A stretch of 35,122 nt of DNA. Origin: Candidatus Pullilachnospira stercoravium (GTDB lineage Bacteria > Bacillota > Clostridia > Lachnospirales > Lachnospiraceae). The notes beneath the pieces are model-generated. The model saw nothing but the letters and a program-made list of their open reading frames with translations. It was not told where the DNA came from and ran no database searches. How positions within the stretch are numbered: position 1 is the first letter of the stretch; every line of letters begins with the position of its first letter. This document shows, piece after piece, positions 663 through 8,494 of the stretch. Where the stretch lies: the NCBI GenBank assembly GCA_018713585.1, contig DVON01000029.1, positions 1 through 35,122 on the forward strand, written 5' to 3'. The translations under genes and the position numbers were made by a program.

Positions 663-2663
663 TTATTGTGCGTGCAGGCTGTATTCCGCAGCAAATTCTT
701 TATCAGATTTGCGGATCCGCCACACGATAATTGCCGCGAATACCAGAACCGCGATCAGGCCGGGAACAAATGCTGTTCCGAGAGATCCGGTGGTGATCAG
801 CGTACCAACCTGGTATACCAGGAAGGCAACCGTGTAACCGGTGGCCAGCTGCAGGCAGATACCGCCGAACAACCATTTTCCGCTCTTCATCTCCGAGTTC
901 ATGGCTCCCAGAGCCGCGAAGCAGGGCGGAGTGTACAGGTTGAACATCAGGTAAGCCAGGGCAGCCACCTTCGTCAGGCCCATAACAACGGCCACTTCGT
1001 TTCCGCTTCCCACCAGGGCCAGTTCATCGGTGTCAATCAGACTGGTGATACCGTAAACGGTTGCCAGCGTACCAACCACGTTCTCTTTGGCAATAAATCC
1101 GGTGATAGCCGCTGCCGCCAGCTGCCATACGCCAAAGCCCAGCGGGATAAACAGGATGGCGAAGGGATGTGCCACGCTTGCCAGGATGGAAGTGTCCTCC
1201 ATGCCTTCCTCCACCAGCTGCAGCTGCCAGTTGAAGCTCTGCATAACCTGTACCACGGTATTGCACACCAGAATGATGGTTCCGGCTTTGATGATGTAGG
1301 CTTTACCACGCTCCAGCATGGAAACCACTGCTCTTTTCAGGCTGGGAACCTTATACTCAGGAAGCTCAATGATAAAGAAAGATTTCCGGTATTTCTGTCC
1401 GGTAATTCTCTTTACCAGCAGAGCGCCCAGCAGAATCAGTACGATACCCACCAGATACATCAGGGGACCCACCCAGGAAGAATCTGAGAAAAATGCTCCG
1501 GCAAACAGCGCAATGACCGGAAGCTTTGCTCCACAGGGCATAAACGGTGTCAGCATGGCGGTGGTTCTGCGCTCTCTCTCGTTACGGATGGTACGAGAAG
1601 CCATAATACCCGGAATGGCACATCCGGTACCGATCACCATGGGGATGACGGATTTTCCGGAAAGACCCACTCTCTTGAAAATGGGATCCAGCACAACAGT
1701 GGCCCGGGCCATGTAGCCGCAGTCTTCCAGAAGCGCGATCAGGAAATACATCACCATTACCAGCGGCAGAAATCCCACAACGGCGCCCACGCCTCCGATA
1801 ATACCGTCCACCAGAATGGCGGAAAGGAACGGATTGGCATCTGCCATCATATCTCCTGCCCAGCCCTGGAATCTCTCAATCCAGGCAACCAGCCAGTCGG
1901 CAATCCAGGTTCCCACCGTGGACTGGGATATGTAAAATACCAGGAACATCACCACCGCGAAAATCGGGATACCGATGATTTTATGGGTGATCACCGCATC
2001 GATTTTATCCTGGAAATTCTTGTCTTTAGTGAGAACCTTTCTCTTTTCCACCTCTTTGACAATGCCGTTGACAAAACCAAACCGCTTTCTGTCGGCAGCT
2101 TCCACGGCATTTTTGTCATGAAGATCAATATCCTCCTGCACATAGGGGGCCTTCTGACCTTTTCCCTTCAGGGCGGCAGCCGCGTTCACGGCTTCTTTCA
2201 GGCCTTCATGTCCGGAAGATGTGGAAATGGTCTTCACCACCGGACAGCCCAGTTTTTCCGACAGGCGTTTCACATCGATTTTGGTCTGCTTCTTCTCTGT
2301 CAGATCACTTTTGTTCAGGGCCACCACCACCGGAACTCCCAGTTCCAGAAGCTGCGTGGTAAAGAACAGGCTCCGGCTCAGGTTCGTGGCATCCACAATA
2401 TTGATAATAGCGTCCGGATGCTCATTCTTCACATAACTGCTGGTGATGCTTTCCTCAGAGGTAAACGGGGACATGGAATAAGCGCCAGGCAGATCCACCG
2501 CGACCAGCTCCTCCCCTCCGTCATAGTACCCTTTTCTGATGGGGCTCTCTTTCCGCTCCACCGTAACACCAGCCCAGTTTCCAACACGTTCATTTCTTCC
2601 TGTGAGCGCATTGTACATGGTGGTCTTACCGCTGTTGGGATTTCCCGCAAAAGCGATTCTCAT
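663..2663 (-). CDS. feoB: Ferrous iron transport protein B
   Basis: N-terminal G domain GNPNSGKTT, DLPGAYS, NKSD; Gate-type membrane domains; ATG at 2663 preceded by GGAGGAGA. Confidence 0.95.
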   Translation of the reverse strand: MRIAFAGNPNSGKTTMYNALTGRNERVGNWAGVTVERKESPIRKGYYDGGEELVAVDLPGAYSMSPFTSEESITSSYVKNEHPDAIINIVDATNLSRSLFFTTQLLELGVPVVVALNKSDLTEKKQTKIDVKRLSEKLGCPVVKTISTSSGHEGLKEAVNAAAALKGKGQKAPYVQEDIDLHDKNAVEAADRKRFGFVNGIVKEVEKRKVLTKDKNFQDKIDAVITHKIIGIPIFAVVMFLVFYISQSTVGTWIADWLVAWIERFQGWAGDMMADANPFLSAILVDGIIGGVGAVVGFLPLVMVMYFLIALLEDCGYMARATVVLDPIFKRVGLSGKSVIPMVIGTGCAIPGIMASRTIRNERERRTTAMLTPFMPCGAKLPVIALFAGAFFSDSSWVGPLMYLVGIVLILLGALLVKRITGQKYRKSFFIIELPEYKVPSLKRAVVSMLERGKAYIIKAGTIILVCNTVVQVMQSFNWQLQLVEEGMEDTSILASVAHPFAILFIPLGFGVWQLAAAAITGFIAKENVVGTLATVYGITSLIDTDELALVGSGNEVAVVMGLTKVAALAYLMFNLYTPPCFAALGAMNSEMKSGKWLFGGICLQLATGYTVAFLVYQVGTLITTGSLGTAFVPGLIAVLVFAAIIVWRIRKSDKEFAAEYSLHAQ

Positions 2664-2698: not shown

Positions 2699-2716
2699 AG
2701 TTAAACTACGCTAACC
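2699..2716. promoter_or_regulatory. Putative operator AGTTAA-ACTACG-CTAACC upstream of feoB
   Basis: Imperfect copy of the GGTTAG-N6-CTAACC inverted repeat seen in four other intergenic locations of the island; lies in the feoA-feoB gap. Confidence 0.45.
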
Positions 2717-2721
2717 GGCTT

Positions 2722-2753
2722 GTAAAAAAAAAGTGAACTGAATCACTTTTTTA
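2722..2753 (-). terminator. Putative intrinsic terminator/attenuator between feoA and feoB
   Basis: Minus strand AAAAAAGTGA-TTCAGT-TCACTTTTTTTTT: perfect 10-bp stem followed by T run, right at the feoA stop codon. Confidence 0.65.
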
Positions 2754-2963
2754 TATTGAAATAGCTTGCGCTAAATCAGTATCGATATTGTATCTTCCAT
2801 CCTTGATGGAGACCACACAGCCGCTCTTTTTGTGAGCGACAACAGTAATCGGCTCTCCACTGTAGCATCCCAGAGAAAAGAGAAAGGCCTCCAGTTCCTC
2901 ATCATTTGTCACAATATCCTTGATGATATATTCCTCTCCCTCTCTGGCATCCAGTAAAGTCAT
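2751..2963 (-). CDS. feoA: FeoA-family protein (ferrous iron transport protein A)
   Basis: Short SH3-like protein MTLLDAREGEEYIIKDI...LFSLGCYSGEPITVVAHKKSGCVVSIKDGRYNIDTDLAQAI; adjacent to feoB. Start reassigned from 3059 to the internal ATG at 2963. Confidence 0.85.
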   Translation of the reverse strand: MTLLDAREGEEYIIKDIVTNDEELEAFLFSLGCYSGEPITVVAHKKSGCVVSIKDGRYNIDTDLAQAISI

Positions 2964-3026
2964 CGCAACATCCTCCCACTGTCTTCGATCTGACCGAAGA
3001 AATAATTTCCATTTCTCCGTTCGCAA

Positions 3027-3044
3027 GGTTAGTCTACTATAACC
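3027..3044. promoter_or_regulatory. Putative operator GGTTAG-TCTACT-ATAACC overlapping the feoA promoter
   Basis: Minus strand TTGACT-N17-TATAGT (or TTGACA-N17-TAGACT) promoter; the inverted repeat covers the -10 region. Confidence 0.6.
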
Positions 3045-3085
3045 AAGGAGGTTTGTCAAGTCAAACTTTATATTTTTTTAATTTT

Positions 3086-5197
3086 TTAAATTCTTTCCGG
3101 ATAGCGCTTCTCTCTTTCCGCTTCATCCAGAAGATTCCTCATGCTTCGAAGTCCGATCATCAGTGTGGAGGCGTTATGGAGAAAAGCGGAAGTCGTCGGC
3201 ATCAGGACGCCGGTCACTCCCAGCAGAATCAGCCCAGTGTTGAATCCCACAATAAATCGGTAATTCATCCGGATACGCCGCACCAGCCCGTCTCCCAGCA
3301 GTTTCAGCGTCACCAGCTCGTCCAGCTGATCGGCGGAAATGGTGATATCCGCGATTTCCCGGGCAATCTCCGCCCCGTCACTGATGGCGATGCCCGCATC
3401 GGAAGCAGAGAGAGCCGGGGAATCGTTGATTCCGTCACCCACCATGATGACGGTTCTTCCCGCATCCTTTTCTTTTCCGATAAAGGCAGCCTTGTCCTCC
3501 GGCAATACTTCTGAATAGTATTCGTCCATGCCCACCTTCCGGGCCACCGCCGCAGCCGTCCGCTGGCTGTCGCCGGTCATCATGACGACCTTTCCGATAC
3601 CGGCCTCCCTCAGCCTGTCAATCACCCGGCAGGCTTCCGGACGCAGCGGATCTTCCACGCAGATCACCGCCGCCAGTTCCCCGTCGATGGCCATGTACAG
3701 ATGCGAGTATTCCTCCGGAAGCTCATGGAATTTTTCCTGATATTCCGGAGCAATCCGGCATTTTTCATCCTCAAAAACAAAGTGATGGCTTCCGATTACC
3801 ACTTTACTGCTGTTGATGTAGGAGGAAATCCCGTGAGCCACGATATACTCCACCTTGGAATGCATTTCTTCATGGACGATGCCCTGATCCTTTGCCGCCT
3901 GCACCACCGCTTTTGCCATGGAATGGGGAAAATGCTCCTCCAGACAGGCCGCCACACACAGCAGCTCCCTCTGGCTTCTGGCGCAGAAGGGCACCACCAT
4001 GGCCACAGAGGGCTGGGCCTTCGTCAGTGTTCCTGTTTTGTCAAAGACAATGGTATCTGCTGCCGCCACCGCCTCCAGATATTTTCCGCCTTTTACGGTG
4101 ATATGATGCAGGCTGGCTTCCCGCATGGCCGAAAGAACGGAGATGGGCATGGCCAGTTTCAGCGCGCAGGAGAAATCCACCATCAGCACCGACAGGGCTT
4201 TTGTCACATTTCTGGTGAGCAGATAGGTGAGTACGGTTCCTCCCAGCGTATAAGGCACCAGCCGGTCCGCGATATGCTCCGCCCGGCTCTCCATGGAAGA
4301 TTTCATTTTCTCCGATTCCTCAATCATCTGTACAATTTTCTCGAATTTGGTGGATCCGGAGGTCTCCCGGACGCAGATGGTCACCTCGCCTTCCTCCACC
4401 ACCGTTCCCGCGTAGACATAGCTTCCCAGAGCCTTGCGGACCGCCGTGGGCTCTCCGGTAAGAGAGGACTGATTCACCATGGCCTCGCCTTTGGCCACTT
4501 CCCCGTCAAAAGGAATCACATTGCCCATATGTACCATGACCCGGTCTCCCGGTGATATGGATTTGGCTGAAACCAGAACCTCTTTATCGTCCTGCACCAG
4601 CCATACCTGGCTGACTCCAAAGGACATGCTTCTGGCCAGATCCGCCACAGATTTCTTGTGGGTCCATTCCTCCAGCAGCTCGCCGATTCCCAGGAGAAAC
4701 ATCACAGAGGAGGCGGTTTCCATCTCTCTTCTGATCACAGAAACCCCGATGGCCGTGGCGTCCAGAACCGCCACCTCCATTTTTCCTCTCGCCAGAGAAC
4801 CAATGCCCTTTGCCAGATATTTCACAGATTTCGCGCCGGTCCATACGGCCCGCACCGGCGCCGGAACAAACAGGCGGCTTCCCATTCTGGCCAGAAGCTT
4901 CAGCACCAGTTTTTCCTGAAATCTGGAATTCATCTCCCTTCCGGAGTGTTCCAGTACCGAATCCGGCACCGGAACCATTTCGTAGGAAAACTCCCGGAGC
5001 GCCCGGAGGATCGGCTCCCTGTCCCCCCGGTAGCAGATCACCGCATCGGCGGTTCTCTCCATCACCTTGGCCATGGTGACATTTTCCGTCTGATATAAAT
5101 AATAAAGCAGGGTGTCCGCCTGGTGAAAGCTCATGCGCTTCTGCGCCATATGCACCCGGATCCGTCCCCTGATTTCATGCCTGATAGTAAATTTCAT
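3086..5197 (-). CDS. Heavy-metal-type (P1B-like) P-type ATPase with HMA-like N-terminus lacking CxxC
   Basis: LTGEPTAVRK, DKTGTLTK, MVGDGINDSPAL motifs; TM4 motif DFSCALKLAMP in place of CPC/SPC. ATG at 5197 with GAGGGAA upstream. Confidence 0.9.
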   Translation of the reverse strand: MKFTIRHEIRGRIRVHMAQKRMSFHQADTLLYYLYQTENVTMAKVMERTADAVICYRGDREPILRALREFSYEMVPVPDSVLEHSGREMNSRFQEKLVLKLLARMGSRLFVPAPVRAVWTGAKSVKYLAKGIGSLARGKMEVAVLDATAIGVSVIRREMETASSVMFLLGIGELLEEWTHKKSVADLARSMSFGVSQVWLVQDDKEVLVSAKSISPGDRVMVHMGNVIPFDGEVAKGEAMVNQSSLTGEPTAVRKALGSYVYAGTVVEEGEVTICVRETSGSTKFEKIVQMIEESEKMKSSMESRAEHIADRLVPYTLGGTVLTYLLTRNVTKALSVLMVDFSCALKLAMPISVLSAMREASLHHITVKGGKYLEAVAAADTIVFDKTGTLTKAQPSVAMVVPFCARSQRELLCVAACLEEHFPHSMAKAVVQAAKDQGIVHEEMHSKVEYIVAHGISSYINSSKVVIGSHHFVFEDEKCRIAPEYQEKFHELPEEYSHLYMAIDGELAAVICVEDPLRPEACRVIDRLREAGIGKVVMMTGDSQRTAAAVARKVGMDEYYSEVLPEDKAAFIGKEKDAGRTVIMVGDGINDSPALSASDAGIAISDGAEIAREIADITISADQLDELVTLKLLGDGLVRRIRMNYRFIVGFNTGLILLGVTGVLMPTTSAFLHNASTLMIGLRSMRNLLDEAEREKRYPERI

Positions 5198-5318
5198 CTT
5201 ATTTTCCCTCACAATTGGATGTGGAAAAAAGCTGCGGTACGGTGTCTCTGCACCCGCCTCTCCCGCAGCTTTCCCACATTATCCGGACAATGTTACTTTT
5301 CCGGACGGCTGTCTTCAC

Positions 5319-5624
5319 TTACTCCTCCGCGTCTTCTTCTCGCGCTTCGGCAGAGGCGTCCTCCATCTCCATGGCTTCCTCCTGTGCCTTTCTGTCTTCA
5401 TTGATTTGCTGAGCCTCGGCAAGAATATCTTCCGCGTTCTCCTGGATTACGGAAGCGGTGTTCATCACGCACTCCTTGGCTCTCAGTACGGCAGCCGTTC
5501 CCTGTGTGTAAATCTTTCTGGCGTCCCTGCTGGACAGCAGTTTGATTCCCGCCGTTCCGAACAGTACACCCGCGGCAAAGATTCCACCTTTCTTCCAGTC
5601 AAAGTTTTTTAAACATTCCAGCAT
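5319..5624 (-). CDS. Small membrane-anchored protein, DUF6110-like
   Basis: KKGGIFAAGVLFGTAGIKLLSSRDARKIYTQGTAAVLRAKECVM followed by an acidic coiled tail; immediately upstream of the P-type ATPase. Confidence 0.6.
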   Translation of the reverse strand: MLECLKNFDWKKGGIFAAGVLFGTAGIKLLSSRDARKIYTQGTAAVLRAKECVMNTASVIQENAEDILAEAQQINEDRKAQEEAMEMEDASAEAREEDAEE

Positions 5625-5636
5625 ATCTGATACCTC

Positions 5637-5717
5637 CTATTTGTGTTTGTAACCCGTATAAAATACCATAGCCATGGAAAACAGCATGACCCATGCCCAG
5701 AATCTGTGTTTTTTCAT
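5637..5717 (-). CDS. 26-aa single-TM microprotein MKKHRFWAWVMLFSMAMVFYTGYKHK
   Basis: ATG at 5717 preceded by GTGAGGGAAGC (RBS); basic ends flanking one hydrophobic helix; resembles DUF6219-type small proteins from memory. Confidence 0.65.
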   Translation of the reverse strand: MKKHRFWAWVMLFSMAMVFYTGYKHK

Positions 5718-5809
5718 GCTTCCCTCACTTTCTGCCCAACAGCCGCAGAGACAGCCCCGCAGGGGTTCCCGGTTCCTGTTAAAACAATGTAAAATCTCTG
5801 GCATTGAAT

Positions 5810-5838
5810 ATGATAGCAACGCATTTTTGCATAGTCAA
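5810..5838 (-). promoter_or_regulatory. Sigma-A-like promoter for the microprotein/DUF6110/P-type ATPase operon
   Basis: Minus strand TTGACT (5838-5833), 17-nt spacer, TATCAT (5815-5810). Confidence 0.7.
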
Positions 5839-5853
5839 TCGCAACACCGGCTG

Positions 5854-5870
5854 ATGATAAATTTTATCAT
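5854..5870. promoter_or_regulatory. Fur/PerR-like 7-1-7 box
   Basis: ATGATAAATTTTATCAT, a perfect palindrome around one central base; compare Fur consensus TGATAATNATTATCA. Confidence 0.6.
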
Positions 5871-5898
5871 TTACAACCACCCTCCGGGCTTATCGCGC

Positions 5899-5941
5899 AA
5901 AAAAAACGCAGTCCGGGGAGTTTGATTTCCTCAGACTGCGG
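5899..5941 (-). terminator. Intrinsic terminator downstream of the Fur-like gene
   Basis: Minus strand CGCAGTC...GACTGCG stem followed by TTTTTTTT. Confidence 0.85.
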
Positions 5942-5942
5942 T

Positions 5943-6362
5943 TCAGTAATCCAGCCGGCACCGGGAAGAATCTTCTTCATCGCCCATGATCACAGAGGCG
6001 ACCTTCCTTCCTCTCAGATAGCCGCATTTGCCCAGGCCTTCCTGAATCACATGTTTCCAGTTTTTTTCTGACAGACGGCAGATGGTCCCGTCATCCAGCA
6101 ATACCACGCACCCCTTCCGGGCCGGATATTCCACTTTGTACATATTTTTCCGGTCAATGGCCCCGATTTCCTCCAGCGCGTTCACCATCCGGTAAACCGT
6201 GGCCAGGCCGATTTTGTGATCTTTGTCAGCCGCCTTATAATAAATCTCCTTGCAGCTGGAGCAGCTGTTTTCCAGAATAATGTCAATCAGCATGCTCCGC
6301 TGTCTGGTAATCCGGCATCCGTTCTTTTTCAGTTTCTCTATAATCTGGTCTTTCCCGCTCAC
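5943..6362 (-). CDS. Fur-superfamily transcriptional regulator, atypical C-terminal domain
   Basis: Fur DNA-binding domain: NGCRITRQRSMLIDIILEN...EIYYKAADKDHKIGLATVYRMVNALEEIGAI. GTG start at 6362 with GGAGG 6 nt upstream. Confidence 0.8.
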   Translation of the reverse strand: MSGKDQIIEKLKKNGCRITRQRSMLIDIILENSCSSCKEIYYKAADKDHKIGLATVYRMVNALEEIGAIDRKNMYKVEYPARKGCVVLLDDGTICRLSEKNWKHVIQEGLGKCGYLRGRKVASVIMGDEEDSSRCRLDY

Positions 6363-6393
6363 AGTATTCCTCCGGCTGGCCTCCAAAGGGCGG

Positions 6394-6756
6394 TCAGGAT
6401 ATGCTCACAACCTGAAAACCTGCTTTTTCCACCGCGCGGCGCAGCGTTTCGTCATCCACCTGCCGGTCACAGGACACCACCGCCGTTCCCTCCTGAAGGT
6501 TCACTCTGACCGAAGCTCCGTCCACTTTATTGATGGCTCTGGTAACACTGTTGACACAGTTTTCACAGTGCATCCCCGATATCCGGATGGTTTTCTGTGC
6601 CGTCACAGGTCCCTCCAAAATCTTATCCTTTGGCTTTCGGACCTTTCCCGAACCTCCGCCGCAGCAGGCGCCCTCGCCTCTGAAGTGCTTGATGGTTCCT
6701 TTCAGGGCGAATATCAGAACCACAATGAGAATCAATACAATCAGTGCATCCGCCAT
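6394..6756 (-). CDS. Membrane-anchored HMA-domain protein
   Basis: MADALIVLILIVVLIFALKGTIKHF TM helix, ACCGGG motif, HMA motif GMHCENC; ATG at 6756 with AGAGGG RBS. Confidence 0.8.
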   Translation of the reverse strand: MADALIVLILIVVLIFALKGTIKHFRGEGACCGGGSGKVRKPKDKILEGPVTAQKTIRISGMHCENCVNSVTRAINKVDGASVRVNLQEGTAVVSCDRQVDDETLRRAVEKAGFQVVSIS

Positions 6757-6940
6757 ACGATCCCTCTTTTCCTCTTCTTTTGTTCCGGACGGCGGCCGCG
6801 GTTTCCCCGGCGGCAGAAGTACCCTGGGCAAACTTTCCATTGCCGGAAACCGAAGGACGCCGGACACACGATGGTATCCGGCGTTTCTCTCAGAATCTCC
6901 CGGTAAACGCCTGAGCAGAACGTTCAGAATCAAACTTTTT

Positions 6941-6958
6941 AGTTAGTAACTTCTAACT
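6941..6958. promoter_or_regulatory. Putative operator AGTTAG-TAACTT-CTAACT
   Basis: Perfect 6-bp arms, N6 spacer; upstream of the HMA/Fur-like operon. Confidence 0.6.
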
Positions 6959-6966
6959 ATATATTA

Positions 6967-6984
6967 GATTAGCAGTGTCTAACC
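6967..6984. promoter_or_regulatory. Putative operator GATTAG-CAGTGT-CTAACC
   Basis: 5/6 arm match, same N6 spacer, 26 bp from the 6941 site; adjoins a TTGACA -35-like hexamer on the minus strand. Confidence 0.55.
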
Positions 6985-7007
6985 GTTTTGTCAATGCCTT
7001 TTTCCTG

Positions 7008-7430
7008 TTATGCCAGCGCTTTTCCCAGATTCCTGCAGGCTTCCTGAGCTTCGTCATCGGGAGCCTCGTTGCAGATCACACTGCCGCAGGCCAGAACCGC
7101 GCCGTCCTGTCTGCACTGGGCTTCCCAGCTTTCCATCCACTCGCCGTCTCCCCAGCCGTAGGAGCCGAACAGGGCGATCTTCTTGCCGGACAGTTTGCTT
7201 TCGCAGGATTGGAACATGGGTTCAAATTCATCCTCCTCCAGCTGTTCATTTCCCATGGACGGGCAACCGAAAGCCACCGCGTCAAACTGATCCATCATAT
7301 CTGCCTGGAAATCCGCACAGGTATAGACACTCACTTCCGCCCCGGCCGCTTTGGCTCCTGCCTCCACCTGCTGTGCCATGGCTTCCGTGTTTCCGGTTCC
7401 ACTCCAGTAAACTACCGCGATTTTGCTCAT
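7008..7430 (-). CDS. Flavodoxin
   Basis: KIAVVYWSGTGNTEAMAQ FMN-binding loop, FGCPSMGNEQLEE, ALFGSYGWGDGEWM. Confidence 0.92.
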   Translation of the reverse strand: MSKIAVVYWSGTGNTEAMAQQVEAGAKAAGAEVSVYTCADFQADMMDQFDAVAFGCPSMGNEQLEEDEFEPMFQSCESKLSGKKIALFGSYGWGDGEWMESWEAQCRQDGAVLACGSVICNEAPDDEAQEACRNLGKALA

Positions 7431-7493
7431 AATACTTACCTCTCTCTCCGATCAACAGACCGCATCCGGCCGTTGTCTTAAATAATATCTATG

Positions 7494-8048
7494 TCAGGCG
7501 GCCACAGTCAGCTGCCAGACACTCCTTCCATTCTGGAACAGTCTCAGATAGACTGCCCCGCACTTTTTGTACCGGCGGAAAAGTTTCTCTTTCTCGCACT
7601 GGTTACAGTACACCTTCCAGCACCCGCTGCAGCAGAAATTCTTTCCTCCGTTTACGATAAAGCCATGCACGTCTTCCACGGGATACCCCAGAAACAGCCC
7701 GATTTCATGGGGAAAATCCCGGTCATTGCGCAGCCGTTCCCTCAGCCGGGACAGGATGCCCGGCAGACCGCCTTTTGAATAACCGCAGGATTCCAGAATT
7801 CTCTCCGCCTCCGGCTGCGTCAGATCCTTTTCCAGACGTTTTTCCCGGTACACATAAAGCAGCATCCGGTTCCGGTGAATTTTCATAATATCCAGCCGAA
7901 CACCCTTTTCCATAAATATCCCGTTCCACCCATCGACGGCCCTGCGGGCCTCCTCAAGATCCGGGCAGGAAAACCAGAACAGGTTTGCCGTCTTAAGCCC
8001 CGCCAACGTGGGAGCGGCATGCACAATCAGCGCTCTCTCCAATTCCAT
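7494..8048 (-). CDS. DUF3793-like family protein
   Basis: HEIGLFLGYPVEDVHGFIVNGGKNFCCSGCWKVYCN signature typical of DUF3793. Confidence 0.8.
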   Translation of the reverse strand: MELERALIVHAAPTLAGLKTANLFWFSCPDLEEARRAVDGWNGIFMEKGVRLDIMKIHRNRMLLYVYREKRLEKDLTQPEAERILESCGYSKGGLPGILSRLRERLRNDRDFPHEIGLFLGYPVEDVHGFIVNGGKNFCCSGCWKVYCNQCEKEKLFRRYKKCGAVYLRLFQNGRSVWQLTVAA

Positions 8049-8050
8049 AC

Positions 8051-8335
8051 TCAGCCCTCCTGCATCTCTTCCAGCAGATTCTGCAGCGCGGAAACGCTGC
8101 TGCTGTGGGTTCTGGCGATGGGGATATTGTTTCTTTTCGCCTCCTGGGAGGCACTGACCACCATCTTATGGGATACGGTATTGGTAAAGAGAATCAGCAG
8201 ATCGGGACATCCCATTTTCTTTTTTATGGAACTGTGCTCCTTTACGAATACCTTTGCCGTGTGGCCGTAATTTTTGCAGATATTCTCATATCTGGTCACC
8301 ATCCGTTCATTTCCTCCGATAATCACTAGACTCAT
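8051..8335 (-). CDS. DUF2325-like family protein
   Basis: MSLVIIGGNERMVTRYENICKNYGHTAKVF...; start moved to ATG at 8335 with AGGAGAGG upstream. Confidence 0.8.
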   Translation of the reverse strand: MSLVIIGGNERMVTRYENICKNYGHTAKVFVKEHSSIKKKMGCPDLLILFTNTVSHKMVVSASQEAKRNNIPIARTHSSSVSALQNLLEEMQEG

Positions 8336-8417
8336 AGGCCTCTCCTTTCCGCTTGCAGTCAGCCGCATGGTTATAGAGGGATCCTTCGGGACTTCTCTTT
8401 GATTTCCCTCAGGATTT

Positions 8418-8435
8418 GGTTAGTTTTACCTAACC
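8418..8435. promoter_or_regulatory. Putative operator GGTTAG-TTTTAC-CTAACC
   Basis: Perfect 6-bp inverted repeat with N6 spacer, upstream of DUF2325/DUF3793/flavodoxin. Confidence 0.65.
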
Positions 8436-8476
8436 CTCTGTGTAAAAAGCAAGGCGTCCCGCGCCTTTCTTTTGTA

Positions 8477-8494
8477 AGTTAGTTTTATCTAACC
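8477..8494. promoter_or_regulatory. Putative operator AGTTAG-TTTTAT-CTAACC
   Basis: 5/6 arm match and near-identical spacer to the 8418 site. Confidence 0.6.

What the first reader, a model, noticed from the sequence alone, without database searches (positions are those of the whole stretch)
2699..8494. Six copies of an 18-bp inverted repeat (R)GTTAG-N6-CTAAC(Y) in the intergenic regions of the iron island
Seen directly: AGTTAAACTACGCTAACC (2699), GGTTAGTCTACTATAACC (3027), AGTTAGTAACTTCTAACT (6941), GATTAGCAGTGTCTAACC (6967), GGTTAGTTTTACCTAACC (8418), AGTTAGTTTTATCTAACC (8477). All lie upstream of feoB, feoA, the HMA/Fur-like operon and the DUF2325-DUF3793-flavodoxin operon. The half-site recalls the DtxR/IdeR core (TTAGGTTAGSCTAACCTAA), but the arms are separated by 6 nt instead of 1. 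It does not match the classical 7-1-7 Fur box. Where a promoter can be proposed, the sites cover the -10 or spacer, consistent with a repressor. Inference: one metal-responsive regulator, perhaps the local Fur-like protein, controls the whole island through a non-standard box.
Basis: partly seen in the sequence, partly recalled or inferred. Interest (0 to 1): 0.75.

Follow-up and report, generated by a model that had tools for sequence, protein, structure and literature searches.

The report
Gut-bacterial iron switch: single-dimer DtxR box
Six short mirror-image DNA sites in this gut-type bacterium are real switches in front of iron-uptake genes, most likely bound by a small DtxR-family iron sensor instead of the usual Fur; the same switch recurs across the Lachnospiraceae, where I found no published description of it.

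Summary
In detail: all six sites are present at the stated coordinates and are far above chance (3 exact GTTAG-N6-CTAAC against 0.005 expected in shuffles; 6 with at most 1 mismatch against 0.28). The dyad is conserved across the family: 691 RGTTAGN6CTAACY sites in 200 Lachnospiraceae-type genomes against 75 for the reversed pattern. It is strictly N6, and a blind search of dtxR-feoA intergenic regions recovers it as the top dyad. Two parts of the first interpretation fail. (1) The local Fur-like protein is not the likely binder: genomes without it carry the same enrichment (362 vs 39) as genomes with it (329 vs 36). (2) The spacing does not set it apart from DtxR/IdeR: one IdeR dimer contacts CCTAA repeats 1+3 or 2+4, so its single-dimer site TTAGGNNNNCCTAA is TTAG-N6-CTAA. 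The best candidate is a short DtxR-family protein with the IdeR-type Cys in its metal site; all 50 divergent dtxR-feoA pairs examined have the box. Mechanism (inferred): the Fe2+-loaded dimer covers the promoter and represses feo, HMA-FurX and flavodoxin operons until iron is scarce. Binding and metal response are untested.

The parts
2699..2716 (.). Box 1 AGTTAAACTACGCTAACC, upstream of feoB (one arm mismatch)
3027..3044 (.). Box 2 GGTTAGTCTACTATAACC, upstream of feoA, covers the -10 TATAGT (one arm mismatch)
6941..6958 (.). Box 3 AGTTAGTAACTTCTAACT, exact, downstream of the HMA-FurX promoter -10
6967..6984 (.). Box 4 GATTAGCAGTGTCTAACC, in the spacer/-10 of the HMA-FurX promoter (one arm mismatch)
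8418..8435 (.). Box 5 GGTTAGTTTTACCTAACC, exact, leader of the DUF2325 operon
8477..8494 (.). Box 6 AGTTAGTTTTATCTAACC, exact, just downstream of the DUF2325-operon -10 TAATAT
663..2663 (-). feoB, ferrous iron transporter
   Evidence: PF02421, PF07670 and PF07664 over cut-off
2751..2963 (-). feoA
   Evidence: PF04023
172..537 (-). FeoB-associated membrane segment plus HMA domain, downstream of feoB
   Evidence: PF12669, PF00403
6394..6756 (-). HMA-domain protein, first gene of the HMA-FurX operon
   Evidence: PF00403
5943..6362 (-). FurX: Fur-family winged helix with a degenerate second half; probably a regulon member, not the binder of these sites
8051..8338 (-). DUF2325 protein, first gene of the flavodoxin operon
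   Evidence: PF10087
7494..8048 (-). DUF3793 protein
   Evidence: PF12672
7008..7430 (-). flavodoxin
   Evidence: PF00258; TIGR01753 over cut-off

Best explanation
The six sites are operators of a family-wide iron regulon controlled by a short two-domain DtxR-family repressor. In this genome that protein is 128 aa and encoded outside the window, at G000:C142:417-803. Each site binds one dimer, one subunit on each GTTAG/CTAAC arm with arm centres about 10 bp apart; it is the single-dimer version of the IdeR/DtxR box (TTAG-N6-CTAA). With Fe2+ bound the dimer covers the -10, the spacer or the start point and blocks transcription. When iron is scarce it leaves, and Feo uptake, the HMA-FurX operon and the flavodoxin operon are expressed. 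Shown: the sites, their conservation, strict spacing, gene context and link to dtxR. Inferred: the binding, Fe2+ as the signal, and repression.
For: In loci fetched without regard to the motif, 28 of 28 and 22 of 22 divergent dtxR-feoA pairs have the site upstream of dtxR, against 12 of 44 and 9 of 58 other dtxR genes (Fisher p 8e-11 and 7e-13). A blind dyad search of those regions puts GTTAG-N6-CTAAC first. In 0.6 Mb of dtxR loci there are 47 exact N6 dyads against 0-1 for every other spacing from 0 to 20. The spacing equals the published single-dimer IdeR site. The DtxR has the IdeR-type Cys at the metal site and an MntR/DtxR fold. FurX-independent enrichment. Besides FurX the only Fur-family protein found in the assembly is PerR-like.
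Against: No binding or expression data. The window genome's own dtxR is not beside feo and has no box in front; the assembly is 89.65% complete, so another DtxR could be missing. The recognition helix lacks Gln43 of IdeR, and residue 9 is Asn, as in some MntRs, not Met. The inner G/C of the IdeR half-site is not kept (6% G). G196 has two sites and no DtxR found.
Confidence: 0.8

Rival explanations
1. The local Fur-like protein (FurX, 5943-6362) binds the sites.
For: It lies in the island behind two of the sites and has an intact Fur winged helix. Genomes with it have more sites on average, 4.5 vs 2.9.
Against: Enrichment over control is the same with and without it, 329/36 vs 362/39. FurX-less genomes hold up to 14 sites. 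Only 4 of 22 dtxR-feoA loci with the site have it nearby. Its second half is degenerate and in some relatives missing.
Confidence: 0.06
2. The same DtxR-family protein binds these sites, but the signal is Mn2+ (an MntR-type regulon), or both metals.
For: Nearest solved structures by sequence are MntRs. Residue 9 is Asn, as in some MntRs. PgMntR, with an Asp+Cys site, was characterised as a manganese regulator (PMC4805248).
Against: Targets are ferrous transporters and flavodoxin, and the Glu99 position is an invariant Cys in the 28 aligned relatives.
Confidence: 0.12
3. Another regulator, such as a canonical Fur or PerR, or an unknown factor, reads the sites.
For: No direct binding test exists.
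Against: The box is not a 7-1-7 Fur box, and the link to dtxR promoters is complete in 50 of 50 divergent pairs.
Confidence: 0.06
4. The repeats are chance or a generic element (terminator, tRNA piece).
For: Short palindromes are common, and one genomic hit (C133) looks like a tRNA T-loop sequence (by eye).
Against: Shuffle counts, nine-fold family-wide enrichment, strict N6, promoter positions, and arms kept while spacers diverge.
Confidence: 0.01

Closest known systems
IdeR/DtxR iron box and its single-dimer half-site TTAGGNNNNCCTAA (PMC8464063, PMC10317159)
   Same: TTAG/CTAA arms with the same within-dimer spacing (N6 between TTAG and CTAA); iron-uptake targets; placement over the -10 or start; regulator with Cys-x-x-Glu-His metal ligands.
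   Different: Only the single-dimer form is used; the inner G/C is not conserved; outer GT/AC is fixed; the regulator has no SH3-like domain, and position 10 is Asn/Asp (Met in some relatives). Found in low-GC Clostridia, not Actinobacteria.
MntR of Bacillus subtilis
   Same: Two-domain length and fold, TM about 0.8; closest solved relatives by sequence; one dimer per 18-bp site (PMC11275975).
   Different: Glu99 is replaced by Cys; targets are feo and flavodoxin genes; the NCBIfam MntR models are not reached (70.6 and 86.6 bits against cut-offs 138 and 153).
PgMntR of Porphyromonas gingivalis (PMC4805248)
   Same: Mixed metal site (Asp/Cys/Glu/His) in a DtxR-family protein of an anaerobe.
   Different: PgMntR carries two C-terminal FeoA domains and, in the EMSA passages read, Fe2+ inhibited complexes of its site variants; the present protein has no FeoA domain.
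Fur regulon of low-GC Gram-positive bacteria, for example Clostridioides difficile (PMC6311696, abstract only)
   Same: Iron-limitation response under one regulator.
   Different: Different regulator family and box; no canonical Fur besides PerR-like and FurX was found in this assembly.

Membership tests
IdeR/DtxR operator, single-dimer form | TTAG and CTAA arms separated by 6 bp (TTAGGNNNNCCTAA) | tested here: met
   47 exact N6 dyads against 0-1 at any other spacing; published site
IdeR/DtxR operator, single-dimer form | Inner G...C of the CCTAA repeats (TTAGG...CCTAA) | tested here: not met
   G at the inner position in 6% of arms
IdeR/DtxR operator, full 19-bp two-dimer box | TTAGGTTAGSCTAACCTAA | tested here: not met
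   6 matches with up to 4 mismatches in 0.6 Mb of dtxR loci, reversed control 2, against 47 half-site dyads
DtxR family (regulator protein) | N-terminal wHTH PF01325 and metal-binding/dimerisation PF02742 over cut-off | tested here: met
   45.2 and 48.4 bits against cut-offs 26 and 27
IdeR-type iron sensor | Cys102, Glu105, His106 in the primary metal site | tested here: met
   Cys100, Glu103, His104 invariant in 28 relatives and aligned with MntR 99/102/103
IdeR-type iron sensor | Met10 in the primary site | tested here: not met
   Asn9 here; Asp or Met in some relatives
IdeR-type iron sensor | C-terminal SH3-like domain | tested here: not met
   128 aa, two domains only
MntR (Mn sensor) | Glu99 and an MntR equivalog score | tested here: not met
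   Cys at that position; scores below both MntR cut-offs
DtxR family (as the regulator of these sites) | Metal-dependent binding to the six sites | not testable with these tools
   needs EMSA or DAP-seq
Fur regulon | 7-1-7 TGATAATNATTATCA box at the sites | tested here: not met
   the only perfect Fur-like dyad in the window is elsewhere, at 5855-5869
Canonical Fur (for the 5943-6362 protein) | Full Fur model including the C-terminal metal/dimerisation half | tested here: not met
   only positions 1-65 of 121 match; C-terminal half poorly conserved or absent in relatives

The most novel reading that the evidence does not exclude
In Lachnospiraceae iron control has passed from Fur to a short DtxR with a mixed Asn/Cys (or Met/Cys) metal site acting through single-dimer boxes. 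Its regulon reaches into fermentation (pyruvate formate-lyase, enolase), and a relic Fur (FurX) reduced to little more than its DNA-binding domain is kept under its control as a partner or antagonist.
Probability: 0.25. Interest if true: 0.75.

Novelty: new variant of a known kind. Interest (0 to 1): 0.6.

Why it matters
A review states that most low-GC Gram-positive species use Fur for iron and limit DtxR proteins to manganese, and that it remains to be investigated whether single-dimer IdeR half-sites occur in other species (PMC10317159). Here a dominant gut family shows such half-sites in front of feo and flavodoxin genes, tied to a Cys-type DtxR. That gives a testable box and regulator for the iron response of many gut commensals, and predicts which uncharacterised genes (DUF3793, DUF2325, FurX, certain ABC transporters) belong to it.

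Tried and rejected
FurX as binder. The 19-bp IdeR box. A 7-1-7 Fur box at the sites. Chance; the test at up to 2 mismatches was too loose to discriminate. Spacings other than N6; the one-mismatch excess at N2 and N10 looks like A/T-rich spacers re-matching the arms. The C133 hit looks like a tRNA T-loop sequence and the C165 hit has no iron context. Literature for DtxR in Lachnospiraceae, Blautia or feo-linked Clostridia: nothing relevant in the held library, which lacks most subscription journals and regulon databases.

Full report
OBSERVATION. The six 18-mers are present as described. In dinucleotide shuffles of the window the exact dyad is expected 0.005 times (3 seen) and the dyad with at most one mismatch 0.28 times (6 seen, maximum 1 in 100 shuffles); no other spacing from 0 to 14 gives an exact hit. 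The whole assembly (2.98 Mb, 293 contigs, 89.65% complete) has 13 sites with at most one mismatch, 6 of them here. The others lie upstream of a DUF454 gene followed by an ABC transporter pair (two sites), another ABC pair, pyruvate formate-lyase and a CydDC-type ABC pair; two look like chance (C133, C165).

CONSERVATION. In 200 genomes of the same family the pattern RGTTAGN6CTAACY occurs 691 times and its reversed control 75 times; 164 genomes have at least one. That the family is Lachnospiraceae is inferred from the record titles of the nearest DtxR loci. In a draw of 399 genomes from the phylum, most genomes outside this family are near control level, with a few high ones (read by eye, not summed). 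In the same-genus genome G090 the layout is the same (pairs 25 and 59 bp apart, against 26 and 59 here); at 8418 the arms are kept while the six central bases changed from TTTTAC to GTGTCG, and the pfl and ABC-pair sites are kept too.

WHO BINDS. Two candidates were compared. FurX (5943-6362) is a Fur-family winged helix with a degenerate second half; it occurs in 73 of 200 genomes, and enrichment over control is the same with it (329/36) and without it (362/39). DtxR-family proteins occur in 188 of 200. The link to dtxR is direct. In loci fetched without regard to the motif, all 28 divergent dtxR-feoA pairs of the family survey (against 12 of 44 other dtxR genes; seven loci chosen because of known sites were left out) and all 22 such pairs among 80 named loci (against 9 of 58) have the site upstream of dtxR. 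A search for any 5-bp inverted repeat with any spacing from 0 to 20 in these intergenic regions puts GTTAG-N6-CTAAC first in both sets. Near-complete genomes with no DtxR by two searches mostly have no site (G050, G110 and G197 none; G196 two), although the group is small. Two genomes that looked DtxR-less but have sites, G136 and G145, hold DtxR N-terminal fragments.

REGISTER. [quoted passage not shown] a single dimer binds a designed half-site with an apparent KD of 78 nM, and the authors propose TTAGGNNNNCCTAA as the redefined consensus (PMC8464063). That is TTAG-N6-CTAA, the spacing found here. The inner G/C is not kept in the present sites (6%), while an outer purine/pyrimidine is favoured (the arms themselves were fixed by the selection of exact sites).

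THE REGULATOR. The one DtxR found in this genome (128 aa, C142:417-803) belongs to the same clade as feo-linked ones, with the same recognition-helix core as L155 and L160, which do have sites. It has Asn9, Glu12, His78, Cys100, Glu103 and His104 at the MntR positions 8, 11, 77, 99, 102 and 103; Cys at that position is the IdeR ligand associated with Fe2+ selectivity (PMC10317159). Its model (pLDDT 90.7) matches MntR and DtxR/IdeR at TM about 0.8. Besides FurX, the only Fur-family protein found in the assembly is PerR-like, beside rubrerythrin-like genes (the rubrerythrin reading is by eye).

MECHANISM. On the minus strand the 3027 site covers the -10 of TTGACT-17-TATAGT, the 6967 site fills the spacer and -10 of TTGACA-17-TAATCT, and the 8477 site follows TTGACG-17-TAATAT over the expected start (the 6967 promoter read by eye). 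These are positions of a repressor. The targets are what a cell wants when iron is short: Fe2+ uptake, and a flavodoxin that can replace ferredoxin (established knowledge of these families). Binding, the metal and repression remain inferred.

LIMITS. The assembly is incomplete, the window genome's own dtxR is unlinked and has no site, and counts in related genomes are not independent events. Absence from the held literature does not prove novelty.

Noticed in passing
5943-6362 (-); L024-L053 and others: FurX: a conserved Fur-family protein, often behind feoB, with an ECSSCKE motif in its DNA-binding half and a degenerate second half; some relatives are only about 80-95 aa. Present in 73 of 200 family genomes.
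   Followed up: partly
5855-5869: A perfect 7-1-7 Fur/PerR-like dyad TGATAAATTTTATCA upstream of the 5319-5624 ORF and the P-type ATPase (3086-5212), that is, a different box for the neighbouring operon.
   Followed up: partly
L017:4053; L194:2528; L200:2258; L083:1502; L192:2555: The same box stands before pyruvate formate-lyase in this genome, in the same-genus genome and near a pfl gene in another family, and before enolase in two genomes.
   Followed up: partly
L015:4810 and 4977; L016:4037; L020:3587; L059, L064: The box precedes pairs of ABC transporter ATPase/permease genes, once with a DUF454 gene.
   Followed up: partly
6941/6967 and 8418/8477; related loci: Paired boxes recur at preferred offsets (26 bp seven times, 34-35 bp seven times, 59 bp four times; overlapping fetches not removed), which may mean cooperative binding on one face.
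   Followed up: no
G545, G566, G567 (other families of the phylum): Isolated genomes outside the family with 35, 16 and 10 exact sites against 0-2 control matches.
   Followed up: no
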